From assembly GCA_019828545.1 (NCBI GenBank), contig JACVRA010000050.1:434001-498000 (forward strand): a stretch of DNA of 64,000 nucleotides, written 5' to 3'. Position 1 is the first letter of the stretch; every line of letters begins with the position of its first letter. Shown here one piece after another: positions 7,297 through 27,865 of the stretch. The position numbers and the translations under genes were made by a program. The DNA is from Paracamarosporium sp. OC-R06-R3 (taxonomy: Eukaryota > Ascomycota > Dothideomycetes > Pleosporales > Didymosphaeriaceae). The notes beneath the pieces were generated by a model. That model had not been told where the DNA came from, did no database searches, and saw only the letters and a list, made by a program, of their open reading frames with translations.

Positions 7297-9230
7297 TTAC
7301 GCTGCCCTCTCTCTCCTCCAGACCTTCATTGCTATATTGGTCTGCTTCGTCACCCAGCTCCCGTGGACGCGCCACTCGTCGTACACAGGCTCAAACTCGA
7401 AACTCGTCAACAGCGCCGCCAGCACCTTGGTCAGCTGCGCCATGGCGATGTTCTGCCCAATGCACTTGCGCGACCCGTCGCCAAACTGCACACAATTAGT
7501 ACCCAGGGTGCCCCACGCGGAGAGCTCTTACTGAGAACATGTGCCGCTTCATCTCGGCGTGCTGCGCAGGCGTCGTGTCGAGCCACCGCTCCGGCCGGAA
7601 CGCGTCGACGTCCGAGCCGAAGAGCGCATGATTGCGGTGCAGGACCCACCCGTTTACGCCGACAATGGTGCCTCCGGGGAGGAAGTAGTTGTCGATGAGG
7701 GCGCCGCCTGGGGGGACTGGGCGGTGAATGCCGTTGCGTTAGTGGAACGCCTCAATACAAAGGGTGGGAAGGTGGGGTTTTGGGAAGAGCGGGATGGGCA
7801 CGCTTGCTTACCGACGCGTTCGAGCATGAGGCCTGTGTTGGTGTGGATACGGAGGGCTTCGTGGATGACTGCGTCGCTGGGGAGAGTGAGGCAGGGGACG
7901 GGCGTAGGGGGGGGGGGGGGGGGGGGNNCGGGGCTGACAGGTAGGGTAGGGTGCTAAGGGTAGCGTAGGGAATGGGGTCGGCCTTGGGGGAAACGGAATC
8001 GAGCTCAGCGCGGAGGGCGGCCTGGACGCGGGGATTGCGGGCGAGGTGGTGTAGGAGAGCGCGTAGGGTGATGGCCAGGACGTCGTGGCCGGCCATTCTG
8101 CACACGCACGCAGTCAGTCATCAGTGCTTATGCTACGGACAAAGCCAGCTAGGGGTGTGCTTGCAAGTTGATGTACAGCGCGCCGGCAATCTCGTCGACG
8201 GAGACCTTGCTTGGGTCTGCGGCGCGCAGCTCGAGGAATTTGCTCAGCAGATCCGTCTTTGCGGCGGGTTTCTCGAGGTGCTGGGCCACCTCGGACACGG
8301 CGTGCAACAGCAAGGGGTTGGGCCGGGTGCGTGTCCACCGCGCCTTGATGCGCATCTGGAGGTCCTGCAGGAGCGGCGATTGTCCCCACTGCCACGCGTT
8401 AGCGGTCCTCCTACGCCCGCAGTTCACGCGTTGAGATGTGCACCCACCAAGCCCGTCATGTGCAGGATCCTGTCTGCAGTTTCAAGCATGTTGTTGACGT
8501 CCTTACCAGTCTCCAGGAACCCGAAGCGCTGCGAGAGATTGATGTCGCCGAGGGAGTCGAACGCGAAGAAGTGCAGCCAGAGTGACATGTCCAGGGTAGC
8601 GGGCCCGGCGGCGGTGTGCTCGCGCAGCTTCTGCATGAATATGGCGACGGTATCGTCGATGCGGGGCTCGAGCTCTTGGATCTTCGCCTTGGTGTACAGG
8701 GTCGAAATGTGGCGCTTCAACCGGGCATGGTAGTCGATGTCTTGGAGCGAGAACAGGTTGTCCAGGCGCTTTCCGTTATACAGCGGCCCCGTTGGCTTGT
8801 AGAAGTTGGACTGCTGGCATATCAGCTATATCTAGATATATACCTATGATATATAATAATGACAAAAGGATTCTCGGTCCATGAAAATCTTGTTATGGAC
8901 GGCTTGGGAGGCATGTGTTGTCGTTTTAGTTTTGGCGGCATATATACGTACCTTTGCAAATGGCGGCCGTGCTGTGTAGATGGCTTTGAGCGCCTCGGGA
9001 CTGGCGAAGGAGACATCGTTTGGCCCGATGCGAACGACGGGGCCGTAGCGCTCGTGCAGGGCGATGTTTCGCGCAGGCATGTCCCCTCGGTATACAGCGT
9101 GGATTTTCCATAGGTTAGAGAAGCTGGCGATAAAGGGGCCTGGTATGCGGCGGAGGTGCTTTGTGTAGCGGGTACTGAGATTGGTGATGAGAAGTAAGAA
9201 TATAATGAGGGACGCGGCTAATACGAGCAT
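7297..9230 (-). CDS. Cytochrome P450 monooxygenase, microsomal
   Basis: Seven exons on the minus strand: 9230..8952, 8813..8448, 8388..8165, 8097..7939, 7876..7812, 7716..7532, 7485..7297; 488 residues. An N-terminal anchor (residues 2-17) is followed by the proline hinge RRIPGPF. The I-helix AGHDVLAIT (292-300) appears only after splicing. The K-helix ExxR is EALR (349-352), then FRPERW, and the haem loop FGDGSRKCIG (427-436) with Cys434. Length and order are typical of fungal class II P450s. The sequence style resembles pisatin-demethylase-type CYPs, but I cannot assign a family number. The intron at 8164..8098 has a GC donor (GCAAGC). The intron at 7938..7877 contains a G-homopolymer and two Ns, so the assembly gap does not break the protein. 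As part of the cluster it probably hydroxylates an aromatic intermediate (inference). Confidence 0.88.
7910..7928. other. Homopolymer G run with two undetermined bases
   Basis: A run of about 20 G ends in NN at 7927-7928. It lies within a predicted P450 intron (C-tract on the coding strand), where length error would not affect the protein. It is probably a sequencing or assembly artefact at a homopolymer. Confidence 0.85.
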
Positions 9231-10404
9231 TTTTGCAGTGGGAAGACTGTGATTAGGTAGAACTGCTGGAAGCCAAGAGTTGACTCCGAGAGCGTTTTAC
9301 ACCTCTAAATGCTACAACTGCTTAATTGTACATTCATACATGCCACCCCTGACGTCCCTCCTTTGATGACGTCCGGCCGCGTGATTGTAGACCACGACAC
9401 CTCTCTTCCTCTGGCAGCCATGCAGGGTGACGAGTTGCAGCAACGGGGGACCAAAACTCAGTATTCCGGATGCAAACGCTGGCTTTGGCGGTGAGCTGGA
9501 ATGCCGATCACCGCTGCGCCGCATTGAGCAATGCGTGCACCCACCTACCCAGACAACCGGTTCAGCCCTGCAGGTAGTGTAGTACCTGTATACACCCGCC
9601 ACCAGTTAAATCCGACCCACGAGGCAATCTCACCACGGACTACACGCGCTCCCTTATCGATTCCGGCACCTCAATTTATCTTGCTGTAGCTCCGAGACCG
9701 GGGGTTTCCGAGGTGCCCGGTGGGAGCACAGAGATGGTTGATGGGGGAAGGCAGGTGCTACGAAGGAACGGATATGCTAGCTGTGATCATGCATTTACAA
9801 ACATTCATGTGACACTTACTGCCTTTGTCCTTTTTCGTAGACCATACCCCTTGAATTGTATGTACGTGGCTGTAAATCATCAAGGGAATCACAATCCTTT
9901 GAAGACAAAATCCCCTCGAGAATTAGACTCTTCTCATACATGCTTCGCTGGCTCGTTAACCGGGGAGCGAGACAAAGTGCGCTGTCGATATCTGGGCCTC
10001 AAGCTTACCATCTCTTGTGAACATCCCGGTCAAATATGCCGGATGATAGGACCGATTTGGGGAGTGTTAACTCAGCTGCGTTGATCACCGAAGTTTGCCT
10101 CTTGACAATCACAGGTGTCACGTTCCCTATCTACCGTGGTGGTGGTGTTGAGACATTTTCTGCCTCGTTTCAGATTGTCACTGAAGCAGGCAAATGCATT
10201 ATGAAAAAACCTTTCCCCGACAGTGTGATGGCTGCTTCTTACGATAATGTGGAGGCGTCGGAAATAAGATGAAAACTGTTGCCTGAATCTGCAGCCTGGG
10301 GGTCTCAGGTGACAGGTCAAGTATCACCGTGAGGGTATGAAGCGCTAGGATTGAGAGATAGCGAGCATTTCAAACGCTACGAACATGGCACTCTTTGACC
10401 AAAC
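9231..10404. other. Divergent spacer between P450 and prenyltransferase genes
   Basis: About 1.2 kb separates two divergently transcribed cluster genes, so it should hold both promoters. Open frames at 9713-10084 and 10036-10272 show no family resemblance and no obvious splice partners. They were not called as genes. Confidence 0.5.
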
Positions 10405-11995
10405 ATGATTTGTTGCTGCTGGAAAAGTCCATTCTCATTCTGCTCCCGCTTCTACCGCCTCCTCTTTTCCAACGAAATGGAGTCCCCGAATCAACATTTC
10501 ACGAGGCTGATTCAACAATGCAAAGCCTCCATCATATGGGTCTTGCACACTGTTCATTGCTTTCGACTTTTTGGTTCTCACGAGCAAGACAAACATGAAT
10601 CCATCTTCGTCTCAAGAGCCCGAAAGGATAACCAGTACATTGAATGTGGTAATAATTACATTCAGCCACATTCACACCCGCTTGATGACAACGCTAGATA
10701 TTGGATGACCTACACTGGAGCGCTTCTGTCGCGTCTTCTCGCCTCCGCTAATTACACCCGAGAGGCCCAGGAGAAGATAATGGAGTTCTACTCAAAAGAC
10801 ATCGTGCCTTACATTGGGACTTCGAGAGATACCCAACAAGTACATGATTTCAAACTCTGGCAGAGCTTCATGACGGACGACGGATGCCCGATTGAGTTGA
10901 GCTGGGATTGGGGCCGAGGCTGCACCTCGCCCAAAGTCCGACTTTCGATCGAGCCCCTCGGTCTCGACGCAGGAACACCCACAGATCCGCTCAACCGCAA
11001 AGGTCAACGGAAGTTCCTTCAGGAAAATATTGAACACATGCCAGGTGTGGATCTCGCATGGTTCCGTCACTTCTTTATGGCCTTTGCCGGCGAGGAGGGG
11101 CTCAATCAAGCGCGCCTCAAAGCCCAGGGACACCTTGCAAATGTGTTTTATGCCTTCGATTTCGAGGGGCAGCGATGCATTCCTAAAGCTTACTTCTTCC
11201 CTCAAGCGAACGCCCAGACTTGTGGGGGAGATGGCTGGGCTCCAATTCGACAGGCTGTGGTTACAGCCCCCTATTTCCGCAATCAAGAAACGCAGGCCAT
11301 GGGCCTTCTTGATGACTTCTTCCAAAAGGAAAACAACAATATCGCTGTTGAGATGGTTGCAATTGACCTCGTCGATCCCCGTAATTCGCGCGTTAAGACT
11401 TACTTCCGGTCGCGTGCTACAGACTTCACGAGTGTTGTGTGGTTTATGACACTGGGTGGAAGACTCAGCACAGTTACTATAGAGACTGGTCTTAAGAGGC
11501 TGAAGCACTTGTGGAATGCCCTGTTTGAAGTGTTTGACAACACGCACTTGAGGGCCGTAGATCACCGCACCTCGGGTGTGTTATATTACACAGACTTCAG
11601 GCTGGGGCAGAAGATGCCCCAAGTGAAGATCTATATTCCTGTCCGCCATTACGTGGCCACCGACCGGAAGGTGATGGAGGTGCTGAACAGCATTCTCACT
11701 CTGCAAGGCCAAAAAGAGTGCCTGGGGAACTACAAACAGGTTCTCGAGGAAACATTGTAAGTGATTCAAAGTAGCATGAATGGACTCCCCGTTGCTAACC
11801 GATAATTGAAGTTCGCACGATGCTTTAGGTAGCGAATCTGGGATACACACTTATATTGGTTGCTCTATTTGTGAAGACGGAACCCTTCGGCTGATTTCAT
11901 ACCTCAACCCTCAGAGCGACAAAATGAAGGCGGCATCCTCTGGGAGGGCAACAAGTGTTTCCTGGGACGAGGAGCGTGCTACAGTCTATCACTGA
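10405..11995 (+). CDS. DMATS-type aromatic (indole) prenyltransferase
   Basis: Exons 10405..11756 and 11812..11995; 511 residues from the first ATG, or 487 from Met25 (10477). Members of this metal-independent ABBA-fold family transfer a prenyl group from DMAPP (or a longer donor) to an aromatic ring, usually of tryptophan, tyrosine or a derived compound. Family signatures seen: YWMTYTGALLSRLL, DDGCPIELSWDW (the Glu corresponds to the indole-binding Glu), VRLSIEPL, KAYFFP, VKIYIPVRHY, and in the second exon GIHTYIGCS...LISYLNPQ. The intron (GTAAGT, branch GCTAAC) is needed to reach that C-terminal motif. The N terminus before about residue 75 is atypical, so the start or a small upstream intron may be wrong. 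The 3' end overlaps the convergent SDR gene by 7 bases. The aromatic substrate cannot be read from sequence. Confidence 0.9.
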
Positions 11996-13026
11996 CTCTT
12001 CTCGTTTTCCACAAGCTCCAAATACTGTCCGACAAGATCTGTTACCATTGCCTCGTAGTCCTTGAATTCCATCCCAAAGAGCTCTTCTGAAGCTCGAGCA
12101 TCCCACTGCACCACCTCGCTTGGCTGTGTCCCGTTCTCGTTGAAAATTCCATTGCTGAAAGCGTCTGGAAACCGAGCCTTCGCAATTGGGATCGCAGCGT
12201 CGTATATGATTGGTATCGTGACCCCATAGTTCGTGTTTCCGGGGACATCTCTGCTCAAAGCCTTGATATGAAGACAGGACACGTCGTGGATATGGGCTGC
12301 TCCTGCGGTACGGGGTGCTTCGAACTTGCGCCCTTTAAGAAGGGCGAGGAGGATCCCATTAGAGCTAGCGAACATATCGCTTGCTTTCAGGGCGCCTGGG
12401 TTCCTTCCGAAAGTATAACCCGGGAAGATGTTAATAATGTCGAAAGCCTCAGGGTGGGTAGACGCGATTTCGTGACTTTGTTGGAGAAGTCGCATTTTTG
12501 CTGCCTGATATGCATCGTATACATTCGCGAAAGGTCCGGAAGTCGGGACGGACCGGGTTTCGGCGGTATATGGACCCTGCCCGCGAGGAGGAAGCGGCAT
12601 TGTAGCTAGTATGGTAGAGGTGAAAACAATCCGTTTGATCGTGGGGAACTTTAGCGCCGCTTGGAGCAAGGATGCATTGCCCTGTGTGATAGGCCGATAG
12701 ATGTCGTTCTCGGCATCAAGATGCGGAAAGGGCAGCGGAGAGGCCGTATGGATAACGAAATCCATGCCTTGAAGTGCGGCATCCCACGCATCTGGCAGCT
12801 CAAAGCTAGTAATTGTTGTAAAGCTGAGTCGGCCGGACGAAGCTGCCTGCTTGACGTGTTCGTTTTGGAGCAGCTTTGCCTCTTTCTCAGATGAGCGAAT
12901 CACGGCTCGAATAACAAAACCGGCTTCCAGGGCGTCGAGTAAGATCTGGAAGCCGATAAGGCCCGTGGCGCCAGTGAGTAAAATCGATTGTGCATCCATA
13001 CGAGTGGTAGTCATTGCGAAGTGCAA
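11989..13026 (-). CDS. Extended SDR, dihydroflavonol-4-reductase/Gre2-like NAD(P)H-dependent reductase
   Basis: Intronless, 345 residues from 13026; Met5 (13014) and Met10 (12999) are alternative starts. The Rossmann signature TGATGLIG (18-25), the HTASP motif (93-97) and the catalytic pair Y173-x3-K177 (YQAAK) place it in the extended SDR family with dihydroflavonol reductases, cinnamoyl-CoA reductases and yeast Gre2 carbonyl reductase. It probably reduces a ketone or aldehyde with NADPH. A TATA-like element lies about 40 bases upstream on the minus strand. It lies tail to tail with the prenyltransferase, overlapping its end by 7 bases. This fits the cluster reading, where it could reduce a carbonyl formed after deamination or oxidation (inference). 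Confidence 0.85.
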   Translation of the reverse strand: MHFAMTTTRMDAQSILLTGATGLIGFQILLDALEAGFVIRAVIRSSEKEAKLLQNEHVKQAASSGRLSFTTITSFELPDAWDAALQGMDFVIHTASPLPFPHLDAENDIYRPITQGNASLLQAALKFPTIKRIVFTSTILATMPLPPRGQGPYTAETRSVPTSGPFANVYDAYQAAKMRLLQQSHEIASTHPEAFDIINIFPGYTFGRNPGALKASDMFASSNGILLALLKGRKFEAPRTAGAAHIHDVSCLHIKALSRDVPGNTNYGVTIPIIYDAAIPIAKARFPDAFSNGIFNENGTQPSEVVQWDARASEELFGMEFKDYEAMVTDLVGQYLELVENEKSQ

Positions 13027-13065
13027 GTGGATTCTGTAGCTTTGAAATTGAAGGATTTACCGCTT

Positions 13066-13075
13066 GATATATAAC
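13066..13075 (-). promoter_or_regulatory. TATA-like element of the SDR gene
   Basis: On the minus strand the sequence reads GTTATATATC, about 40 bases before the first ATG at 13026. It is a plausible core promoter; no experimental support is implied. Confidence 0.4.
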
Positions 13076-13425
13076 CCCGCCCCCGAGAGCCTCAGGTGAC
13101 GCCAGGCTGCGTAATGTGGCGCTCGGTCCTCTTCTTATTCTGTTGGTACAGACAGCCTCGGAAGTCCGTTGGGCAGCGAGCTCTGCCACCAATGATCTTG
13201 CATCAAAAGTGACACAGCAATCAACTTCAATCCAATAGTATGCTACAGATATAACATGGTCTCAAACCTATCTACAAACACCATCGTGCTACAAATACCA
13301 CCCAGGTACCGTGCTACAAATCAAGATGCCTTTCAACTCAGTTTTCGGGTGCGTACAGTCTATGGCAATCATGTGCCACTGGATCAATTTGTAAACCGGT
13401 CCACCTTTCTGTCCAAGTGGGACTT

Positions 13426-14774
13426 TTATTTTGAGGCCCTGGGGCCTCCAGGTATATTTTGCCAATCCGGCACTATAGTATTTCCACAACTCACCGTCTC
13501 GTCCAGCGTAAGTGTAGATGTGACATCGAATGTCATGTCGACCCGAATGCTTTCCAGGTGAGATCGATCTCCAGCGATCTTTGCAGGTTCGAGACGGGCC
13601 AGCTCCAATTCTGGGTCTCCGTTCGTTTGTACCATTCCCGAAGTCGAATTTAGGCCATCCTGGCCGATCTTCATCCACCACTTGTCCGTCTTTTTGGAAC
13701 CTATGGTCGTAATTCCGTATCGACGGTCTACGTTCTGCGGTTCCCAGCTTCTGTTGTGAGATCCAAATCGCTCACGGATATATTTGGGGATCTTTCCATA
13801 CAATGGCCGCAGACAGACTAAGCATGCTGCTGCATTGTACATGCCAGTTTCGACAACGGTCCATACCAGGAGAGGAGAGCTCGTCCCTATATCGATTAGC
13901 TTGATATTAAGCTCTCATGGGAGTACTTACACATTGGATCCGGTGGTCTTGTACGAAGAGCTTTGAAAAAAAATGTCATTCGCATGCATGATGCGATAAG
14001 GCCACTCCATGTATTAGCACAAGCAGTCAGATAGCCCTCCGTCTACTTACACGCTCCCTGTCAAACATACAAACCAAATGCTCAGCTTTCTCAATGGAGT
14101 CGCTTTAAGATGCCAGATATTTTCAATGGGCAGAAGTAGGATTGCCACGTCGGCGATGATGTTGGGAGGATTTGAGAGTTTCCACCAAAGCTCCACATTG
14201 AAGCATCGACCAGGGACGCTCGGGTCCCACGTACGCTTCAGTGGAATACACTCGAATTGGGCGGAAATGATGAAAGCAAGGCAGTTGCCCACCAGAAATG
14301 CGATGACTACCCAACAAAAACGACGAGTTTTTTGTCCGGGAAAGATTCGAAGGTAGAGCGTGACTACGGAAACTCTCGACAACATGTTCGACATAACGTA
14401 TAATATGTCGAGCAAATATATGCAGATATTCCAAGTCACTATGGAGTGAGGGTCTGTCTCGAGAACAACAGAGGTGTGTCTCCCGACATGTGCGTGCGGG
14501 ATTGCCGCTAGGTCCATCAATTTCTGTAACTGAGATCAAGGGGAGCCATCTCACTAAACATAACCGTGTAAACGCCCATCAAGAAAATCCAGGCCGGAAT
14601 GAGGAGGAATTCGTCCCATCCATGTCTTCCTGGCGTGAGAGTGCGGGCGTAAAATCTCAAAGCCAAAAGTGTTGTACAAATAATCATGATAGTGATAGTT
14701 GCAGCATACAGGTTACTGGAGGTATCTACTGAGCGATACTCTGCTGTATGTGGCCCTGAGCCTGTGTTTGTCAT
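13426..14774 (-). CDS. Pth11-like integral membrane protein, fungal rhodopsin-fold family (copy 1)
   Basis: Exons 14774..14565, 14523..14051, 14004..13931, 13886..13426; 405 residues. It shows the usual run of seven membrane helices: LRFYARTLTPGRHGWDEFLL in the first part, then a hydrophobic block around YLLDILYVMSNMLSRVSVVT, FECIPLKRTW with the conserved Cys and Trp, and NIIADVAILLLPI. The cytoplasmic tail after about residue 280 is polar. The first intron is short (41 bases) and its donor is ambiguous; a donor 9 bases upstream also keeps frame. The family includes Magnaporthe Pth11, a receptor-like surface-sensing protein; most members have unknown ligands. It lies in the metabolite cluster, divergent from the MFS gene. 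Confidence 0.75.
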
Positions 14775-15692
14775 CGCGGCTCAGGTCCTGAGTGATGCTA
14801 AAGAATATACGATCACAGTGTTTCAAGTGCCAAGGGATGCCTAGGTAGTTCGCAAATTCAAGTCGAAAATCGCATTGTGTTCTCTAGTCTCTTGAAACAA
14901 AGTATAGGAGTAGTGGATGTCTGCCCAGCGCTCAAGCTTCGCTCGTAAAGAATAAGCAATGCCACTTTTGTAGTGCAGGGGTAGAGAACGGGTGAGGACG
15001 CTCCCTGTGGCTGCGTAACGATCGACCGCTTTGAACCAGGTTTATTTCGGACTCCGAGGGCCATGGTACTTATTTCCCAGCCAGGGTTCGTTTAGAGAGC
15101 TTTTTTGGCGTGCCTTTTGCCTTGCAGATAAGTCGTCGTGAGACACGTCCGTTTTGGGAATGGTTTCGAGGAACGATTCGGGCAGCGCCAGTCCCCTGGG
15201 AACTCGATAACTAATGCACCGAATACTGTACCACCTACCTTCACGAATTTCATCGTCGCGACACATGACGTGGCATCGCTGGTGCGATCGGCATGAGTGT
15301 TACAGGATCGGTGATCATAATCGTTTGCCTGTTTTTGAAAGCAGGCGGCAGACAATTTGTACAATGTGGCACAGCAAGCTGAACAGTGCGATCTGCAAAG
15401 ATCCACACTGGGTGAGAGGGAGCTCCCATGTACAGGAACAAAGAAAGTTTGAAACCATTGCATATTGGCCCGGCTAAAATCAGTACTGGGGTCCCGAGAG
15501 ACGGGAACCGTCCGACGCATGTGAACTTAATACATGGAAACCAGTGCTTGTGTTTGTCGCCTTAATATTGCAATACGCCGCGCCGCAATTTTCAACGACA
15601 GTGTGTCACTCTTGACCTCACACCTGTATTAAACATCCCAACTATACCTTCAGTTTGCTGTTTCGTCCATAATTTGGTCCCTACTACACGAA
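14775..15692. other. Divergent promoter region between Pth11-like and MFS genes
   Basis: A 0.9 kb spacer. The 142-codon minus-strand frame at 15092-15520 and its neighbours are Cys/Arg-rich, lack family motifs and have no splice partners, so no gene is called. Confidence 0.5.
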
Positions 15693-17137
15693 ATGAGCGA
15701 AGAACCCAGGCACGAGAAAACTAACACACATGGTGAACAAGCTGACAAGTCATCATCGGTGGAGGAAGTGAAAAGAGGCCTTCCACCGCCACCAGATGGT
15801 GGGTTGAGAGCATGGATGCAATGTGCAGCGGGGTTTTGCGTCTTCTTTAACACGTGGGGCTTGTTAAATTCATTTGGTGTGTATTCCATGCAGTGTGGTA
15901 TTTAAGATGTGAACCTGACAACAACAGGCATATTCCAGGCGTATTACGAGCAGGACCTACTGCGTACCTCTTCTTCAAGTCAGATATCATGGATTGGCAC
16001 AATCCAGTCATCATTCATCATGCTTGGTTCTGTTTACTCTGGACCGTTGTATGACTGGGGGTATTTGCACCCTCTTATCTGGACAGGCTCCGTGCTTCTG
16101 GTTCTGGGCATGTTCATGACTAGCCTGTGCAAAGAGTACTGGCAGGTGGTCCTTGCCCAAGGTCTGTTGATGGGCCTTGGTACGGGATGTCTGTTCACAC
16201 CCACAACTGGGATAATAGCTTCGTACTTTGGCAAAAAGCGAGGTCTTGCGATGGGCATCGTGTCTACAGGGAGTACGGTCGGTAAGTCAAGTCCGAGTAT
16301 CTAGTTTCCTGCTCGAGAAGCACTAACAATTTACAGGTGGTATCATCTATCCAGTGATGTTCCACAAGTTAGTGGGACCTGCTGGTTTTGGCTGGGCAAG
16401 TCGAGCTATTGGTTTCGTCATGCTTGCTCTTTGCGTGCTCCCCATGGTAAGCATGAAGATGCGCACAAAGCCCCCCGCCGTCCGTCGGGTCTTCGATGCA
16501 GCCGCTTGGAACGATGCACACTATACCTTCTATGCTATTGCATTGTTCATAGGCTATGCTGGCACGTATGTTCCATTTTTCTATATACAGCTTTACTGCT
16601 TGGAAAAAGATGTTATTACCGGGGAGCTGAATTTTTATCTCCTTCCTATCATGAATGCAACAGGGTTTTTTGGTCGCTTGGTAAGTCTCCTGATACTCGT
16701 ACGGCCACACATTCTAATCATCATCTCAGGCCTTGGGATACATGGCTGATCGCATTGGTCCTCTTAATGCCTTCATACTATCTAGCGGAGCATGCGGCAT
16801 CGTGCTCTATGGCTGGATTGGGATGAATAGTGAAGCTAGCATCATCGTATTCTGCATCTTGTACGGCTTCTTTAGTTCGGGGCTTATTACGCTTCCAGCG
16901 ACGGTCGTCGCGGTCGTACTGTGCCCTGACATACGCCAATTTGGCGTCAGGATAACCATGCAGCTAGTTCCATCTGCTATTGGTTTACTGATCGGAAATC
17001 CGATTGCCGGGGCCATTTTGAAGAAAGGATGGGTTGGTCTTCAAGTCTTCTCAGCAACTACAGTCATCGGTTGTACATTGCTAAGCGCTGCGGCTCGCGT
17101 GTCGAAAGTGGGATGGGGTTTAAAAGAGCGATGCTAA
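15693..17137 (+). CDS. MFS transporter, monocarboxylate-transporter-like
   Basis: Exons 15693..15876, 15928..16281, 16337..16680, 16730..17137; 429 residues. The family signature DGGLRAW at the first helix is followed by [12 protein letters not shown], which the first intron splits and restores (G+GC). [20 protein letters not shown], a long Gly-rich helix [39 protein letters not shown] and [13 protein letters not shown] are all typical of fungal MCT-type major facilitator proteins. About 12 hydrophobic segments can be counted. It probably sits in the plasma membrane and moves organic anions or the cluster product. It is followed by the ammonia-lyase on the same strand 415 bases downstream. 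Confidence 0.88.
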
Positions 17138-17552
17138 GCTTTCTTGGAGCGATTCAAGTATGATTTCTCTCAAGCTTTGTAAACGCCAGTTTGTAGCTTC
17201 TATTTTTGGGCTACACAGGGTGCATCACATTTAACGTAAACAATCATGGAAATAACTGTAGAATATGACAAATTCGAGCATATGAAACTCACAGTATCAT
17301 ATGTGGCGGATAACGTACGCCTCCCGGGGTTATGTAATTCGTTTGACAATCCATGAGGCCGATAGTAGCCAAGTACAGTCATGTTAGCATATCAAAAAGA
17401 ATGTTGCCCCCTTCACACGTCATACCGCGTATTCCACAGGATTCCATGACCCGTGATGGCTATTTTTAAGGCCCTGGGGGTGCATAAAAGGTCGGCTCTC
17501 GCCAACATTTAAACCTGAATTTAGTGCTCGCTCATCAACTTCTCACTCCATC
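17138..17552 (+). promoter_or_regulatory. Upstream region of the MIO ammonia-lyase gene with a TATA-like box
   Basis: A 415-base spacer. CATAAAAG at about 17483-17490 lies about 65 bases before the ATG at 17553 and is a plausible TATA element. No other signal was recognised. Confidence 0.35.
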
Positions 17553-19717
17553 ATGTCAGCACCACACACCAAAATTGCAATGAAGGAGTGGGATCATATG
17601 AAAGGGCTTCTAACCCAGACAGTTCCATGCATAACGCTTGATGGTGAAAGTATGAAAGTATCAGATGTAGCGACAATCTCAAGGCATGGGTCCCAGCTCA
17701 TAAAGTAGTCCGTCTCATGTACTAATAAGCTCATAAGGTACAATATATCCGTTGCAGTACATGAATCTGCAAAGCAAAAATTACATGACAGCCTAGAAGC
17801 ACTCCGAAACCGCGTCTCAGATGGACAAATTATATATGGTAAGAGTTGTGCAGTTGATCGAGAGAGGAGCCTGACTGACGACACAAAGGAGTTAATACGG
17901 GCTTTGGCGGCACCGCAGATGTGCGCAATCACCAGACTCTCGAGCTTCAGAGAGTGCTCATCCGCGAACTTCACTACGGCATCATGAGTCCTAGCACTCG
18001 GGATCCAAAGCCTCAGAATGCAACAATCCTCGCAAAGTGCATCCCAGGAATGGAAACACCGCCTGTTGATGTTTTGCCCAAAACATGGACCAGAGCTGCG
18101 ATGTTGATTCGAGCAAATTCTCTAATCAAGGGGGCGTCCTCGGTCCGGCCAGTTATTGTGGAGCGCTTATTGGATCTACTAAAGCTAGACATCATTCCTA
18201 TCATCCCACTACACGGAAGTATCTCGGCCTCTGGAGATCTGTCGCCTCTGTCATACATTGGTGGAGCTATACAGGGGAAACCTACCATCCGAATCCATGG
18301 AGAGAAGGACCAGTATGCCGACCAAGCTTTCGCACGCGAAGGGCTATCACCATTGACGCTGGAGGCAAAGGAGGGCCTTGCCATCGTAAACGGTACCGCA
18401 ATATCGACTGCTGCGGCTGCCCTCACTCTGAATGACAATCACACGCTATCTCTCTTGGCGCAGATCCTAACGGCACTGAGCTGCGAGGCTCTCCTAGGCA
18501 CTGTCGAGAGCTACGATCCGTTCTTCTCAGAGGTACGCCCACACCCGGGGCAGATTGAAACAGCAAAGAATCTTCGGACATTGCTACATGCGTCAAAATT
18601 GGTACGCGTGAACGACGGCACAGATTCCTCTCTGCGACAAGATCGCTACTCGATCCGCACAGCGCCTCAATGGCTAGGGCCGGTGCTCGAAAACACAGTG
18701 CTTGCCCATCAACAAATCACTATTGAGCTCAATTCAGCGACTGACAACCCCCTGGAATCTCACGGCCGTATGCTTCATGGAGGTAACTTCCAAGCCCTCG
18801 CCGTGACATCGGCTATGGAGAAAGTCCGCCATAACAACTATTACATAGGACGCATGCTCTTTGCGCAGTGCACTGAGATGATTAATCCTAGCACAAGCAA
18901 AGGGCTACCACCTAACCTTGTTGCCGAAGACCCGAGTACATCGTTTATTTTCAAAGGCACAGATATTAATATGGCGTCACTGCAGGCAGAGCTCGGCTTC
19001 CTATCGACGCCAATGAACTATGTTCAGTCGGCGGAAATGGGCAACCAATCACTCAATTCGTTAGCCTTAATATCGGCGAGATACACGCACAAAAGCAACG
19101 AGATACTCTACCAAATGGCGGCCGTGCATCTTATCGCCGTGTGCCAGGCTCTTGATATTCGCGTAATCAATATGCGATTCTTCGACGCTGTGCAGTCGGG
19201 CATTGCCAAAGCCCTGCAAGATCACTTAGGTACTATCGACACGTTCAGCTCGCACAAGCAGAGTCTTTTGGAGACTATGTATAAGGCACTCGAGAAGGCG
19301 TTTGATACCACCGTCAGCCTGGACTCAGCGGAAAGATTCGTGAACATCGCTAACGCTATGGTAAATGCACTCCGTATCCATCCGGCTTCAAGTGCATTGC
19401 CAGATCCCTGGAACACCCTGGCAGAATGCGAAGCTACAATCGCTGACGAGATGCTTACTTGCTGGAACCTCCAACGAGACGCATATCTGGCTCATGGGAA
19501 TGCAGCAGAGTATCTTGGGACCGGCACACGTGAGATGTACAACTTTGTACGCCAGGATTTGGAGGTGCCGATCTTACACAGGGAGAAGATACAGACGCCA
19601 CAGCTGGATGGAGAGGTTGTCGAGAGGGCTTTTACTGTTGGCTCTTACAATTCCTTGGTGTACGAGGCTGTGCGAGATGGAAGGGTTAGAGATGTCATTC
19701 AGCGGTGCCTGTTGTAA
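17553..19717 (+). CDS. Aromatic amino acid ammonia-lyase (PAL/HAL family, MIO enzyme)
   Basis: Exons 17553..17689, 17738..17838, 17889..19717; 688 residues, normal for fungal PAL. The self-forming MIO cofactor triad is A193-S194-G195 within GSISASGDLSPLSYIGG. Other family blocks: IYGVNTGFGGTAD with the catalytic loop Tyr (Y79, restored by intron 2), NGTA, QDRYSIRTAPQWLGP, TDNPLE, HGGNFQA, and AEMGNQSLNSLALISARYT. The enzyme removes ammonia from an aromatic amino acid to give an arylacrylate such as cinnamate. The residue pair that reads the ring appears to be E106-L107 (in LIREL), by gapless alignment from memory to F137-L138 of parsley PAL and Ser-His of HAL; Glu there is unusual and leaves the substrate open. 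The first intron's donor (GTCCCA) is weak. An alternative GT at 17705 also keeps frame but gives a 33-base intron and five extra residues. Confidence 0.9.
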
Positions 19718-20273
19718 TGGGGTCGTTAGCGAGATCGTTTTCTAGTTTGTGTTGTTTGATTTCTTACCATATAGTCTGGGGGTTTTACAGAAGTGCTTTT
19801 TCAAGAGTAGCTATATAACTATTCAGTTATAAGTTAGCAATTTTAAGTTGATTATATGCTTATAGGTCTAGCCTAAATATAAATAGGTGCCCTTTTTTTA
19901 TAGTAGATCTTAAATTCTGATATATATAAGAATAGTAGAACTAGATCTACTCTATCTTTATTAAATTTATTTTTACATCTTCTTAGTACTTAGAATCTTA
20001 GATTCTAAAACCCCTTATATATCCTTTTTATACCCTTATAAGTTTTAAGCATATGAGTAAAACACTCTCCTTTGTTATTAAACCTTTTAGCTATAAAATC
20101 CCTTGACAGTGATACATCTGGAGTGTTGTTTTTGACGAAAATTCGGCATACAAAAAAATGATACAAAAAGGTGATTCCCCTGGGAATCGGTACAGAGAAA
20201 GAGCGTAATAAAAAAAGAGCAAAAAGCTCGGTACAGTGATACATATACAATATGTTACTATGACAATTTAATG
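19718..20273. repeat. AT-rich island, possible eroded transposon or MITE
   Basis: About 550 bases much richer in A+T than the flanking genes. A 12-base perfect direct repeat (ACAGTGATACAT) occurs at 20106-20117 and 20233-20244. The open frame at 20005-20250 (minus) looks like low-complexity translation. This is consistent with a RIP-degraded mobile element, but no terminal inverted repeats or transposase motifs can be shown. Confidence 0.35.
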
Positions 20274-21622
20274 TTATTTATTCTCTATTTTTCTTATATT
20301 AGTCTGGCTACTAAAGGATCCTTCATCTAGTTCAATATCACTATCTGCCCTCTCCCACCCATGAGCTTGACCCAAGCCATGGGTGCTAGCCCGTATCCTG
20401 CTCTGCTTGGTTCGATTATTAGTGCCTGGCCCGTAGTTGTTACTTTGGCTGTTGGACATTTGTGTAGACCGTAGGTTTAGAACGCTACCAAGGAGGGGCT
20501 TTAGTGAAGGTGCGCATGCGGCTATAATACCGAGATTCACCTGGATGAATCCCCAAAACTGTATATCGTTTGTACTATTTCAGTATCAGTATCTGCTATG
20601 AGTGTAAGCGTAGAGGTAGAGACACACAATGATTGATCAGGGTCACCCCTTTTGGTGTTCTGTACAACAGTCTTGACGATTCCCACCGCAACGGCCCTTG
20701 ATTGCGCTTAGTTTTGTTCATGGGTGCTGGATATTCTCTGGTTCGAAACCATGGGAGCTTACACGTATCCTAAGCTTAGAATGAAGATGAGGTAGATGCG
20801 AGTTTTGTGTTTCATTTGCAAGCGTAATATGATAGGCACAGGAATGGTGGCAAAGCAGATGTCAGTTAGGATGTTACAGGCTGTGTATCCCAGTCAGTGA
20901 CCAAAGATTCCAGAGCAGAGTGTCAGAGGAGTATCTCAAGGCTTACTTGTATTCATCAGCGCGAAGCCTTTGTGAGTTTCCACAGGGAGGCATATCGGCT
21001 TCGGCTTGAGATCTTTGTTCCAGAATCCGGCGATAGGTTTGCAAACAAAGCACCATTCAATCCATGACACCACCGTGTATAGACAGACGAAGACTGTCAG
21101 AAGTTTAGCGGCTGTGATTTCAGGTGTGTCGTCGCAGGTGAAGAGGCATACCGATGAGTGACCACAGCATCTTGGTATACAGCGGAGGGGTACCGAGGCG
21201 AAGGAGAGAGAATCCAATGGATAACTTGAGAAAAGCCATCCCGCCAATGGTCGAGACGATGGCTTGTATGAAGGTCATCTTCAAGTACTCGTGACGATCT
21301 GCTGGTTCGAGGGTGTCGGTGTGGCGGCCTAAGCCATGCATAGCTGCGAGGATGTAGGTCACCATGCCACCAAGAAAGACACAGGCCTGGCTATTACAGT
21401 CAGTCAAGTAGCGAGCAAGGTAAGATACGGCGGGGTACTCGCCGTCGCAGCCAGCATCATCGCGTCGTCTCTGCCGAAAGCTTTCACGATTACGACTCGA
21501 GCGTACATGCGCATTCCAACGAAGATCAAGGCAATGGCATGAAAGGCTGCAGTGACGCCGAGGAGATAGCCCAGGTTACTCTCTGCGACACGCTCCGGGT
21601 CAGTGTTCTTGGGCGGCCCCAT
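20274..21622 (-). CDS. Pth11-like integral membrane protein, fungal rhodopsin-fold family (copy 2)
   Basis: Exons 21622..21429, 21390..21152, 21111..20947, 20880..20763, 20696..20628, 20574..20274; 361 residues. The frame closes across all five introns. Family landmarks in order: MRMYARVVIVKAFGRDD after helix 1, AAMHGLGRHTDTL, FLKLSIGFSLLRL, WCFVCKPIAGFWN, NILTDICFATIPVPI, VAVGIVKTVVQ, and FWGFIQVNLGIIAACAPSLK before a polar tail. The first intron is only 38 bases and is the weakest part of the model. A membrane receptor-like role is inferred from the family. The gene-dense position between the ammonia-lyase and the tyrosinase suggests co-inheritance with the cluster, but not necessarily a role in it. 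Confidence 0.72.
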
Positions 21623-22923
21623 GACGAACGAAGGAATAGAAGATCAAGAGTAGGTCAGGTCAGTTGGAGGGAGCGTCAGTGCCATATACATATCTAGGTA
21701 TATCTTTCGATCGAAACCAAGGATGTATCATGTTCCACGTCCCCTTATAACTTTCCACATGCAGTATGACATATACTTTCGTTTAAGCATGCGGCCCGGT
21801 CGAGACTCAGAGAGAAGAGCGAGTGAGATTTAATTGCTTGATCCTCTAATCTGGCAGCGCAACAGAGAATCCTTTGCAAGGAACTGTCTTCTTAAGGAAG
21901 ATCAACAGAAGGCTTTGCGTTCGGGGATGCGCTAAGGCTCCCGCGCATGGTTGTGGCCCGTTTACATATAACACATTGAAGCGAGACCTAGCCGACGACC
22001 CGATGTTGCCGAGAGCAATTGCCAGTTGCATATGCTTGGCGTCGGGTGTCAGGGAAATGACGGCACAGCGCAGCCGCCCGATTGAGCTTTTGGTGGGTTT
22101 GGAGCCCATGTGCGGCCACGATAAGTAACCAAGACTGAGCTTGATTAGATGGTGAATGCTTCGAATGTGCGGCGAAGGTAGTGGTGATACCAGTCTGAAC
22201 ATGTATTGTTGCGCATACAAGGGCAACGATTGGTTGACTCTCACGCTTCCCATTCATCCTCATGCCTGTGCGTTTCAAGGAGCATGTCACCGTTCCCACC
22301 GACACCACGTTCGCCAAGTTCGACAATACTGTGTATGTGGGACTAAGAACTGGCTCACGCACGACATTGAATTAAAAAGAAAACGTTTAGATTTTGGTCT
22401 TTCATCGTCCAAAGCCTGTAAGTGTTTGCATTCTGTAGCCGGGCTGGATGCGTGTTGATTGTACGATTCTCTTCTGCTCTCGCTTCGCGCTTGTACAGAT
22501 CTTCGCATGAGAGGAGGTCTGACTACCCTGTGCTGCACGTCCAGACCGCGGCTCCCGGTCCATCACCCGTCTTAGCGCAATAGCCAAGTAAATGCATATG
22601 ATACCTTCTGTGATCGGTTAGTAAAAGGATTCCTCACCCCAGTTAGCCTAATTTCGGTAAGTGTCCGACACAGCATCAGCACTCTCTCCTCCCGGCATAG
22701 ACGCGTATTCAAACTACATCCCACGCAATCCCACAACAAGGGTCTCGTATTCGCCTCCAAATTTCCTCCAGTATCGGAATGCGCACCCACCCACACGGCA
22801 ACTCTTCTGCATGAATCAGCGGCAAAATCTCTACATATATATGTATAACCGCCAGCGTGGATCGGCACATCCTGCTGTCGCACGCAGCCAACCCTTGCCC
22901 ATAGCGAGCGCTTCCACGTTGCA
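21623..22923. other. Divergent spacer between Pth11-like copy 2 and tyrosinase
   Basis: About 1.3 kb with only short open frames on both strands and none with recognisable motifs. The right end contains the tyrosinase core promoter. Confidence 0.5.
22834..22848 (+). promoter_or_regulatory. TATA box of the tyrosinase gene
   Basis: CATATATATGTATAA lies 76 bases before the ATG at 22924, a usual spacing for a fungal core promoter. Confidence 0.45.
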
Positions 22924-24273
22924 ATGCGTTTGTTTCAAGCTGCAGCCGCCGTGCAGCTGCTCGCCGCACGGCTCGTAGCTGCTGTTCCCGTAAATGCGGC
23001 TGAAGCTCCGGCCATCGCCATAGACCCAGCAACCGACCCGCTCGAGGCTCTGGCGCAACTACAGAAGTATGCCTATGACACGTTGGAACAGAGTGATGAA
23101 GTTGCAAAAAGGGCACCGAACAGCTGCTCCTTGGCTAACGCGGCGGTGCGGAAAGACTGGTAAGTCCACCCCGTGCACAACCTTGCACTTACTGATCTTG
23201 CAAAGGGAGTACATGTCCAAGTCGGATCGAAAAGCATACATCAAAGCTGTACAGTGTCTGCAGAAGTTGCCATCCAAGTCCGACCAGACATGGTTTACAG
23301 CAGCGAAGACTCGTTTTGATGACTTTGTCGCCGTTCACGTGAATCAGACCATCTATATACATGGCAACGGTCTCTTCCTCACCTGGCATCGTTACTTCGT
23401 TTGGTCATACGAACAAGCCTTGAGGAACGAGTGCGGCTACCAGGGCTATCAACCTGTAAGTGTAGCATTCTTCCACCGATCTTTGACCAAAATCTGACCC
23501 TGCCAGTACTGGAACTGGTTTGCACACACCGATAACATTTACAAGTCCCCTGTCTTCGACGGTAGTGACACCAGCATGGGCGGCGATGGCGCATTCTTTT
23601 TACACAACGGAAGTCTTGCTGGTGCTCGGACAATAGTCATACCTTCTGGAAAAGGAGGTGGATGTGTTGCTAGCGGCCCTTTCAAGAAGTAAGACTACAC
23701 TACCGCATGCTTTGACAATTTCAAGAATCTTACAAAACTAGTATGCAAGCGAACGTCGGTCCCATCTCGCCTGGAATGCAGGGCTTCGTTGATCTGGTAG
23801 CCGACATCACCGTATACAACCCCCGCTGTTTGCGCCGAGACCTCAGCTCTTATATCCCTAAGAAATGGTTCACCACGACGAACTTGCTGAATGTCACAAT
23901 TGGCGAAGGTTCCTACACTCATAAGAGGTTCTGGACCGAGATTCAAGGCCGGTACCCGGACGGTTTCCTCGGTCTGCACACGTCGGGCCACTACACAATG
24001 GGTGGCGACGCGACCGACCTCTACTCATCCGTCAATGATCCCGCTTTTTGGCTTCACCACGCTATGCTCGACCGCATCTACTGGATCTGGCAAACGCTCC
24101 ACCCGGCCGAGGCAAACAAGGTGGCCGGTACCCTGACGTTACAAAATAAACCTGAGACCCGGGACGCCACCATAGATGAACCTTTGGACATGGGAGTGAA
24201 CGGTGAGACGCGGAAGATTCGTGATATGTTCAACACCTTAGGTGGTACGCCCTTGTGCTACATTTATGTATAA
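22924..24273 (+). CDS. Secreted tyrosinase / catechol oxidase-like type-3 copper enzyme
   Basis: Exons 22924..23159, 23206..23455, 23507..23688, 23742..24273; 399 residues. A signal-like hydrophobic N terminus (1-25) suggests entry into the secretory pathway. CuA ligands are H123, H131 and H140 (IHGNGLFLTWHRYF). CuB ligands are H302 and H306 (GLHTSGHYTMGG) and H329 (DPAFWLHHAMLDRIYW). Both dicopper sites look complete. The enzyme would hydroxylate and/or oxidise phenols to o-quinones with O2. At about 400 residues it matches the short fungal tyrosinase-fold enzymes, several of which tailor secondary metabolites, rather than the longer melanin-type tyrosinases. It sits 1.3 kb from Pth11-like copy 2 at the right edge of the cluster. 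Confidence 0.9.
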
Positions 24274-25984: not shown

Positions 25985-27383
25985 ATGCAGCCCACACTCA
26001 CGCTCGTCTTAATTGCCGTCATCGTCTCCGCCACACGAGTGTCAATCGCTTATGCCTACGTTATCATTGGCGCCGGAACTAGCGGTTTCGTGCTAGCAAC
26101 CCGACTTTCTGAAGGTGCCTCAGTGACAGTCGCCGTGATCGAGCCGGGCACCGACCAAGGAATAAACCACTTGTCACGGATCTAGAGAAATTCAGGCAGA
26201 CTTTTGACACCGATATCGACTGGGCATACAAAGTAGATGTAGAGAGCAGAGAATTGATCATAAGATCTGGAAAGGCTTGGGGCGGGACCAGTGTCCTGAA
26301 CGGTATGACTTATGTTCGAGGTGAAGCCGCTTCTAGCGATGCTTGGGATTCCCTTGGCAACATAGATTGGACGTGGGGTATTCTGTTTCCTTACGTTATA
26401 CCAGGCCCACGTTTGAATAGTTGGCAACAGGCACAGCGTACGTGCCTCAATATCATGGATTTTATGGATCTGTACGTGTTGGATGTACGCCCGAGCTGTT
26501 GAATAGATCATTCTCAGCTCCTATCATGGGTGCTTGGATGGAGATAGAGTTGGAACATAAAGCTGAATGGAATAGTGATATGCTAAGAGGAATTAACATA
26601 GGGCCTCAAACGCTAGATGCGGAGAAGAAGAGCTCATTATCTCCCAATGGAAGAGCTCATTATCTCCCAATGGAAGAGCTCACAAATCTGGATGTCATTT
26701 GAGGAACTGTCACACGTATTGAACGGGGCTGTGGAGTGGCGTGAAGGAAATTTGTCGCGGAAGGTGTACACTTCGTCGCTGGGAAGAACACAACGCAAAA
26801 CATATATGCAAAGAGGGAAGTCGGTGTCGGAGAGAACCTTGTCGGACAGCCTGGGCATTCATTCACATACACTAGCACACTCAAACCCGCCGCTAGTGCC
26901 TACCACACTTTCGTCGATGGTACAGATATTTACCGCAATTTCAATCGCACCATCGTGGCATCTCAACATCTCTCACAATGGGCGCAAGACATGGTCGAAG
27001 AGTCATCACCTGGCGGACCTGATTCTTGAAGTATCGAACGGTTGCTGCAAATTCAGTACGACCTTTTCTTCAAGCATAAGGCAGTCGCTACGGATATAGT
27101 CACCATTATCCTTGATGGCTTACTGCTATCGCAATTCTGGATCCTACTGCCGTTGGGAAAGTTATAACAGCCCATGCGGCACAAGATGCTGGACGAGCTC
27201 ACGGCTAAACTCACTGAAAGTGGAGATATCGCGACGTTCCTTGCTCTGAATAGGTTCCGCGTAGTAGTAGATAAGCGGGCTAGGCTAGGTGTATGTGTTC
27301 AAGATGTTAGCGGCTGGGTGACGTTGACGCGAGATTTCAGTCCAATTGAGCTAAGCAGATTTTCTGTGCGATTATCATCTTAA
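25985..27383 (+). pseudogene. Decayed GMC oxidoreductase (glucose/choline/aryl-alcohol oxidase family)
   Basis: Pieces of one GMC flavoenzyme lie in order but in different frames. 25985-26185 has a hydrophobic leader and the FAD-binding motif VIIGAGTSGFVLATRLSE. About 26190-26410 (another frame) has DTDIDWAYK and GKAWGGTSVLNGMTYVRG. About 26421-26700 (third frame) has YHGFYGSVRVGCTPELLN. A later frame around 26750-27030 has AEGVHFVAGKN and related GMC-like text interrupted by stops. At least three frame changes are needed, and the stop at 26185 and the TGA after 26698 do not look like splice sites. A 23-base tandem duplication at 26628-26673 itself shifts the frame. The C-terminal His/Asn active-site region is not recognisable. 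An intact version would have been secreted and flavin-dependent. It may be a lost oxidase of the neighbouring cluster. Confidence 0.7.
26628..26673 (+). repeat. 23-base tandem duplication inside the GMC pseudogene
   Basis: A 23-base unit beginning AAGAGCTCATTATC occurs twice back to back, and a third copy starts at 26674. As 23 is not a multiple of three, it shifts the reading frame. Confidence 0.85.
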
Positions 27384-27865
27384 AGCTGGAGGTCGGGTGA
27401 CGGCTGAGCAGAGTGCCACAACATGGAGTCAACATCATATCGTGGCGGTCCCCGCCGCAAGACCATATAATGCACGCCCCACCAATTTTAAACTTCAGGC
27501 ACCACCGTCTGCTTTCAGGATCCCTAATTTCCAAGGATTATAATCGCGTCACCGATGATGAATAGTGAACGTGAACAAGCTGCGTGGCTAAGTAGATTAT
27601 TCGATAAATCCCACGAGCTAACAGGCCGGATAGAAAAAAAGGGCAAAGAACGAAGTCCAAGGAGCTTAGTAGGCATGATGTCTAATGATCTTCGAAGGAA
27701 TGAATTTTCACGAGGGACTGGAACTTAATGTAACAACTAAATGCAACCGTGCCAGCAAATGAGCGAGCGTTCCCATGCAATGCAAACCAAAAAATGCAAA
27801 CTAAAAAATGCCAACCTTTTCAACCTGGGTAAAACAAGAACGCCATATGCTTTATATTCCGTGTC

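What the first reader, a model, noticed from the sequence alone, without database searches (positions are those of the whole stretch)
7297..24273. Candidate undescribed metabolite cluster: MIO ammonia-lyase + DMATS prenyltransferase + P450 + tyrosinase + SDR + MFS, no PKS/NRPS core
Six enzyme or transporter genes that are each frequent in secondary metabolism sit in 17 kb with no unrelated housekeeping gene between them. The combination is unusual: an aromatic amino acid lyase makes arylacrylates, a DMATS enzyme prenylates aromatic rings, and a secreted tyrosinase and a P450 oxidise them. A natural reading is a pathway to prenylated hydroxycinnamate- or quinone-type compounds, with either lyase or prenyltransferase acting first. 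Cluster finders that rely on PKS, NRPS or terpene cores could reduce this to a plain DMATS hit. I know of no characterised cluster with exactly this set, but I could not search.
Basis: partly seen in the sequence, partly recalled or inferred. Interest (0 to 1): 0.87.

Follow-up and report, generated by a model that had tools for sequence, protein, structure and literature searches.

The report
Fungal prenyltransferase plus ammonia-lyase gene cluster
A fungal genome carries, close together, an enzyme that probably adds a five-carbon prenyl group to an aromatic amino acid and an enzyme that strips off the amino group, and the same pair recurs in other fungi, pointing to a family of natural products whose structure is still unknown.

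Summary
What holds up best is the pair at the centre: DMATS prenyltransferase and MIO ammonia-lyase. Among the 120 listed relatives of each, 17 of 120 DMATS rows sit on a contig that also carries a listed lyase (12 on contigs under 500 kb; about 0.2 expected per listed lyase), three pairs carry near-consecutive locus tags, and one Xylaria gene model joins both domains. So the pair is a recurrent ascomycete module. The lyase branch has glutamate at the PAL/TAL selectivity position; the DMATS carries markers of enzymes that prenylate free Trp/Tyr. Best reading: prenyl-amino acid, then prenylated arylacrylic acid, exported by a monocarboxylate-type carrier and tailored by P450 and SDR. Membership of the SDR (unlinked in Byssothecium) and especially the tyrosinase is unproven. 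The logic resembles what I recall of fungerin, whose histidine prenyltransferase FunA is the closest solved sequence, but pocket motifs differ. None of ten library searches showed a paper linking the two enzymes. New variant of a known kind.

The parts
10477..11760 (+). DMATS-type aromatic prenyltransferase, 427 aa (an ATG at 10405 is also open; the 76% relative P0121 begins at the later one)
   Evidence: PF11991 300 bits; nearest solved sequences 9iia (called GliD1, FunA in the entry title) and DMATS1 8day; AlphaFold model of the 451 aa frame, mean pLDDT 79.5, residues 1-23 and 49-77 under 50; top fold match DMATS1 8db0; SFMTDD..PIE and RxKxYxR motifs
17553..19717 (+). MIO-type aromatic amino acid ammonia-lyase, 688 aa, exons 17553-17689, 17738-17838, 17889-19717; E106 at the selectivity position
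   Evidence: PF00221 469.6 bits; best solved hit phenylalanine ammonia-lyase 1y2m, 431 bits; ASG triad and pocket residues
15693..17137 (+). MFS carrier of monocarboxylate-transporter type, 429 aa, 4 exons; probable exporter
   Evidence: PF07690; the 12 distinct solved sequences matched are monocarboxylate transporters 1, 2, 8 or 10
11989..13014 (-). Extended SDR reductase (ketoreductase / DFR-like), 341 aa, one exon; possible tailoring enzyme
   Evidence: Epimerase family; solved ketoreductase and dihydroflavonol-reductase relatives; YxxxK present (sequence)
7297..9230 (-). Cytochrome P450, 484 aa, 7 exons (an NN run at 7927-7928 falls inside a modelled intron); possible tailoring enzyme; coding GC 61% against 49-53% in the other five genes
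   Evidence: PF00067; model; GC
22924..24273 (+). Tyrosinase / catechol-oxidase-type copper enzyme, 399 aa, 4 exons, with a signal-peptide-like start (by eye); membership in the cluster unproven
   Evidence: PF00264; best solved hit catechol oxidase 4j3p, 329 bits over 38-399
13426..14774 (-). Fungal rhodopsin-domain membrane protein (extent approximate, full model not built); role unknown, family very large in this genome
   Evidence: PF20684 120 bits for 14047-14535; 160 matches in the genome
20116..20226 (.). Dispersed repeat of about 110 bases lying between the lyase and the tyrosinase
   Evidence: 39 further matches over this stretch in the own genome

Best explanation
The locus is a small biosynthetic cluster whose core is a two-enzyme module. 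The DMATS prenylates a free aromatic amino acid (tyrosine or tryptophan more likely than histidine) with dimethylallyl diphosphate; the MIO lyase then removes ammonia to give a prenylated arylacrylic acid (a prenyl-coumaric or prenyl-indoleacrylic acid). The monocarboxylate-type MFS exports the acid; the P450 and SDR probably oxidise and reduce it further. Shown: gene identities, complete frames with catalytic motifs, recurrence of the pair in other ascomycetes. Inferred: substrate, order of steps, roles of P450, SDR and MFS. Open: whether the tyrosinase belongs.
For: Pairing: 17 of 120 listed DMATS rows share a contig length with one of 120 listed lyase rows (recounted in 74); 12 are on contigs under 500 kb against 0.2 expected per listed lyase at an assumed 40 Mb genome. 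Near-consecutive locus tags in Stromatinia cepivora (EAF04_007348/007351), Piccolia ochrophora (M1833_000610/000611) and Hypoxylon texense (Hte_007992/007993); one Xylaria curta gene model holds both domains. The best lyase hit (P0001, 63%) and the second-best DMATS hit (P0122, 43%) share one 16.7 kb contig. DMATS: RxKxYxR and the F-M-E contacts are present in the window and in 17 of 17 paired rows; PMC11258057 (passages) ties an arginine at this place to amino-acid rather than cyclic-dipeptide substrates. Top fold match is DMATS1, solved with L-Trp or L-Tyr. Lyase: MIO triad and carboxylate-binding residues present; E at the switch in the window and in 15 of 15 paired rows that cover it, of a paired set of 17 without the doubtful P0098. 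MFS: the 12 solved sequences matched are monocarboxylate transporters.
Against: The arginine is present in all 123 aligned DMATS rows, so it does not set the paired ones apart. E at the switch is also in 84 of 103 other listed lyases, so it marks a branch, not the pairing; paired row P0098 has Gly. Many listed lyases have no listed DMATS on their contig, and the label 'paired' is only weakly clustered on either tree. In Byssothecium circinans the lyase (contig 1148575), DMATS (320144) and SDR (591423) relatives lie on three contigs. No shared promoter word was found, no transcription factor among the 20 pieces scanned, no expression data. The best solved sequence hit is FunA, a histidine enzyme.
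Confidence: 0.6

Rival explanations
1. Histidine route as in fungerin: the DMATS prenylates free histidine and the lyase makes a prenylated urocanic acid.
For: 9iia, titled free histidine prenyltransferase FunA, is the best solved sequence hit (141.8 bits against 134.3 for DMATS1). Many relatives of the lyase are named 'phenylalanine and histidine ammonia-lyase' by their sources. A glutamate at the switch could hold an imidazole (inference). Fungerin is, from recall, a prenylated imidazole acrylate ester.
Against: Where FunA departs from DMATS1 (CPLTVEG for SFMTDD, Q for R after RxKxY, IFLRLTAY for YIPVRHY) the window and the seven paired rows printed follow DMATS1 or nearly so. The lyase matches PAL at 431 bits and chains named histidine ammonia-lyase at 231 or less. 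No methyltransferase among the window pieces scanned.
Confidence: 0.17
2. Lyase first: the lyase makes an arylacrylic acid from Tyr (or Phe/Trp) and the DMATS prenylates that acid.
For: RePT, a DMATS, also accepts phenolics such as stilbenes (passages). Glu at the switch could hold a free phenol (inference).
Against: RePT converts the amino acids best, and the arginine of amino-acid DMATSs is kept; that arginine could, however, also bind an acrylate.
Confidence: 0.18
3. Loose neighbourhood: the pair is real but P450, SDR, MFS and tyrosinase are unrelated neighbours.
For: Listed SDR relatives do not share contigs with listed lyases or DMATS; the P450s fused to lyases in Aspergillus and Talaromyces are not orthologous to this P450 (best 25.6% over 246 columns and 36% over 83); P450, rhodopsin and tyrosinase genes are numerous; P450 GC differs.
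Against: All six are complete and close, between a kinase gene on the left and an exopolysaccharide-type gene set on the right.
Confidence: 0.25
4. Eutypine/asperpentyn-like pathway: lyase to cinnamate, coumarate and 4-hydroxybenzoate, then prenylation and P450 oxidation.
For: PMC11376284 (passages) proposes PAL, a prenyltransferase and a P450 in that pathway; [quoted passage not shown]
Against: That pathway uses a UbiA-type prenyltransferase, not a DMATS; no side-chain-shortening enzyme was recognised among the pieces scanned.
Confidence: 0.07
5. The MIO enzyme is an aminomutase giving a prenylated beta-amino acid.
For: Chains named phenylalanine aminomutase are among the closer solved hits (4v2r, 340.8 bits; from recall the Taxus enzyme).
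Against: PAL 1y2m scores higher (431 bits); no NRPS among the pieces scanned.
Confidence: 0.05

Closest known systems
Fungerin pathway (FunA, free histidine prenyltransferase, PDB 9iia)
   Same: A DMATS acting on a free amino acid; best solved sequence hit. From recall the end product is a prenylated heteroaryl acrylate, so the same prenylate-then-deaminate logic.
   Different: Pocket motifs differ; about 30% identity; no methyltransferase seen here. Whether the fungerin cluster holds a lyase of this branch was not checked.
DMATS1 of Fusarium fujikuroi and RePT of Rasamsonia emersonii
   Same: Fold (DMATS1) and markers SFM.., PIE, RxKxYxR (PMC11258057 passages)
   Different: About 30% identity to DMATS1 over the aligned part; the passages read name no lyase partner.
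Eutypine / siccayne / asperpentyn clusters
   Same: Ammonia-lyase, prenylation and P450 on a shikimate-derived ring (PMC11376284 passages)
   Different: UbiA-type prenyltransferase acting on 4-hydroxybenzoate instead of a DMATS.
Ordinary fungal PAL/TAL (1y2m; yeast origin from recall)
   Same: Family, MIO triad, substrate carboxylate residues
   Different: Glu106-Leu107 in place of His-Gln at the selectivity position; the genome keeps another copy with His-Leu on C134.

Membership tests
DMATS aromatic prenyltransferase family | PF11991 over its cut-off, full length | tested here: met
   300.2 bits, profile 2-356 of 357
DMATS aromatic prenyltransferase family | Prenyltransferase fold of the family | tested here: met
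   Predicted model matches DMATS1, FgaPT2, FtmPT1
Amino-acid-converting DMATS | Arginine after RxKxY (passage of PMC11258057, cut at its start; read with the RePT numbering R284, K286, Y288, R290 given there) | tested here: met
   RVKTYFR at 329-335 of the 451 aa frame
Amino-acid-converting DMATS | Activity on a free amino acid | not testable with these tools
   needs an assay
FunA-type histidine prenyltransferase | FunA pocket motifs (taken from one sequence; not an established signature) | tested here: not met
   CPLTVEG, RLKFYFQ, IFLRLTAY in FunA against SFMTDDG, RVKTYFR, IYIPVRHY here
MIO ammonia-lyase (PF00221) | Ala-Ser-Gly triad and catalytic Tyr | tested here: met
   A193-S194-G195, Y79
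Canonical PAL or TAL | Phe or His at the selectivity switch (rule recalled from the literature) | tested here: not met
   E106, aligned to His of 1y2m and Cys of 4v2q; E in most of the branch
Eutypine-type pathway | UbiA-type prenyltransferase | tested here: not met
   The prenyltransferase in the cluster is a DMATS; UbiA was not searched for in the rest of the genome
Recurrent lyase-DMATS gene pair | Both genes linked in other genomes | tested here: met
Six-gene cluster as one unit | The same extra genes around the pair in relatives | tested here: inconclusive
   Only the SDR was tested: 0 of 25 relatives on a contig of a listed lyase or DMATS; MFS and tyrosinase were not searched in other genomes, the P450 only against three fused gene models

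The most novel reading that the evidence does not exclude
A DMATS prenyltransferase and a glutamate-switch branch of the PAL family form a widespread ascomycete two-enzyme core for an undescribed class of prenylated arylacrylic acids, in which the lyase has evolved to deaminate prenylated amino acids and each lineage adds its own tailoring genes; this window is one such variant.
Probability: 0.45. Interest if true: 0.7.

Novelty: new variant of a known kind. Interest (0 to 1): 0.5.

Why it matters
Clusters without PKS, NRPS or terpene synthase are easily logged as a bare DMATS hit. A recurrent DMATS-lyase pair gives a search rule for a whole set of such clusters, a lyase branch with an untested residue at the selectivity position (possibly useful for making substituted arylacrylates), and a directly testable substrate prediction.

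Tried and rejected
Second copy of the cluster in the own genome: not found; the other lyases lie on C134 and C29, the other DMATS on C69 and C24, and the next SDR (41%) on C331.

The pair Aaosphaeria arxii P0098/P0123 shares only a 4.68 Mb contig, and its lyase lies on another branch with Gly at the switch. I count it among the 17 but treat it as probably chance; it was dropped, and the joined model P0082 added, in the paired set of 17 used.

Shared promoter words in 500 bases upstream of the six genes: not above shuffles. P450 orthology with the P450-lyase fusions of Aspergillus and Talaromyces: rejected. The first MIO splice model was wrong and was replaced.

Papers: ten searches, with terms around ammonia-lyase plus DMATS, aromatic prenyltransferase, dimethylallyltryptophan synthase, tryptophan ammonia-lyase, Xylaria, DMATS1, spartinoxide. 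No listing or passage seen showed a cluster with both enzymes; most listed papers were seen as listings only. Passages were read in 10 papers; none was read whole. The library lacks most subscription papers.

Not done: search of other genomes for relatives of the MFS, tyrosinase and P450 (the three protein searches went to lyase, DMATS and SDR); no tool here held DNA of other fungi. The lyase search scored only the 7996 candidates sharing most words and listed 120 of 4459 hits; the DMATS search listed 120 of 159, so unpaired rows may have unlisted partners. The structure alignment held the window and 39 of the 120 listed DMATS.
Full report
What is there. The window lies in a 43.1 Mb, 337-contig assembly (C241:434001-498000). 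The named relatives that I recognise are ascomycetes, the nearest mostly Pleosporales from recall (Zopfia, Delitschia, Periconia, Byssothecium), so the fungus is probably a Dothideomycete (inference). Gene models and Pfam confirm the six genes of the finding. By eye each keeps its catalytic motifs: P450 with ExxR and FGDGSRKCIG; DMATS with PIE and the K/R/Y motifs; SDR with YxxxK; lyase with Ala-Ser-Gly; tyrosinase with histidines that align to catechol oxidase 4j3p.

Borders. Left: a protein kinase frame followed by a long frame without Pfam match at 471-4044. Right: a broken GMC oxidoreductase at about 25985-27385, then a glycosyltransferase, an Agd3 deacetylase, a GH114 and an epimerase, with unnamed frames among them; from recall this is the make-up of the galactosaminogalactan exopolysaccharide cluster. 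The candidate cluster thus ends by 24.3 kb or earlier.

The pair. Three protein searches were available. The lyase search listed 120 of 4459 hits, the DMATS search 120 of 159. Matching contig lengths between the lists gives 17 of 120 DMATS rows on a contig that also holds a listed lyase. Twelve of these are on contigs under 500 kb; for the 99 DMATS rows on such contigs the expectation is 0.20 per listed lyase per genome of 40 Mb (the 40 Mb is an assumption, and contig length stands in for contig identity). Three pairs carry locus tags one to three numbers apart, and P0082 of Xylaria curta is one gene model matching the DMATS (37% over 377 columns) and the lyase (51% over 621), which may be a true fusion or an annotation slip across adjacent genes. 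The window's best lyase hit (P0001, 63%) and second-best DMATS hit (P0122, 43%) share one 16.7 kb contig.

Trees. In the quick DMATS tree the window falls in a 13-row set (support 94); of its 7 other rows on contigs over 10 kb, 6 are paired, one of them (Aaosphaeria) doubtful, and the seventh is Byssothecium. In the lyase FastTree the window falls in an 11-row set (support 99) with 5 of 10 others paired. The window lyase joins P0001 with support of only 39, and the window DMATS with P0121 joins P0122 with support 88, a join that the program flags as a meeting of long branches and hence unsafe. Over the whole trees the label 'paired' (18 rows) is only weakly clustered: 15 changes against shuffled means of 17.0 and 17.1, with 31 and 29 of 500 shuffles as low. 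That may reflect short contigs and lost partners, or loose linkage; it is weak evidence either way.

Lyase. It matches PAL 1y2m at 431 bits. In the printed alignments E106-L107 stand where 1y2m has His-Gln and 4v2q has Cys-Leu, the position that I recall as the PAL/TAL selectivity switch. E is present in 15 of 15 paired rows that cover it (2 of 17 do not) and in 84 of 103 other rows, while the genome's C134 lyase has His. Of the other pocket residues compared the MIO triad, Tyr, Asn, Gln, Arg, Phe, Lys and Glu are as in PAL. So the enzyme is a PAL-family lyase with a changed ring-end contact; what it prefers is unknown.

DMATS. It is closest in sequence to 9iia (141.8 bits; FunA by the entry title) and DMATS1 (134.3 bits), and in predicted fold to DMATS1 with FunA close behind. 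PMC11258057 (passages) describes an arginine tied to the RxKxY motif as a mark of amino-acid-converting DMATSs and reports that RePT and DMATS1 make O4-prenyl-tyrosine as well as prenyl-tryptophans. The window and 17 of 17 paired rows have RxKxYxR and the F-M-E contacts. FunA has Q for the arginine and other residues for F-M, while it keeps the E. This tilts the substrate towards Tyr or Trp at moderate confidence: the arginine is shared by all 123 aligned rows, paired or not, and no assay exists.

Other genes. The 12 solved sequences that the MFS matches are monocarboxylate transporters, fitting export of an acid. The SDR search gave 25 hits; none shares a contig length with a listed lyase or DMATS, and in Byssothecium circinans lyase, DMATS and SDR relatives are on three different contigs, which speaks against a fixed set. 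The P450 was not traced in other genomes; its coding GC is 61% against 49-53% in the other five. The tyrosinase is one of many in the genome (39 exon-level matches; about 22 places by my own grouping) and is separated from the lyase by 3.2 kb with a repeat and a poor rhodopsin gene.

Judgement. Six genes: confirmed. Recurrent DMATS-lyase core: well supported. Prenylated arylacrylate product: probable inference. Tyrosinase-driven quinone: unsupported. None of the ten library searches showed such a core, but fungerin (recall; FunA title) suggests that a free-amino-acid DMATS leading to an aryl acrylate already exists in nature, so I call this a new variant of a known kind rather than a new kind.

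Noticed in passing
window 27866-49611: Glycosyltransferase, Agd3 deacetylase with CBM87, GH114 and an epimerase near one another: looks like a galactosaminogalactan exopolysaccharide cluster (name from recall).
   Followed up: partly
window 25985-27385: Broken GMC oxidoreductase with stops in all three forward frames, next to the tyrosinase.
   Followed up: partly
window 20116-20226: Repeat of about 110 bases with 39 further matches in the genome at 77-93% identity, perhaps a small mobile element.
   Followed up: no
L006 922-2916 (G000:C29): Ammonia-lyase family gene whose MIO triad reads Gly-Val-Gly instead of Ala-Ser-Gly, so it probably cannot form the MIO group.
   Followed up: no
window 471-4044: Protein kinase frame followed by a 757 aa frame without Pfam match, NLR-like in appearance to my eye.
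   Followed up: no
L003 (G000:C24:559974-560531): Third DMATS place of the genome, with 3 TAG inside the match, beside an aldehyde-dehydrogenase-like frame (named by eye).
   Followed up: no
P0063, P0076, P0096: Relatives of the lyase in Aspergillus and Talaromyces predicted as fusions with a P450 unlike the window's: perhaps another recurrent partner of such lyases.
   Followed up: partly
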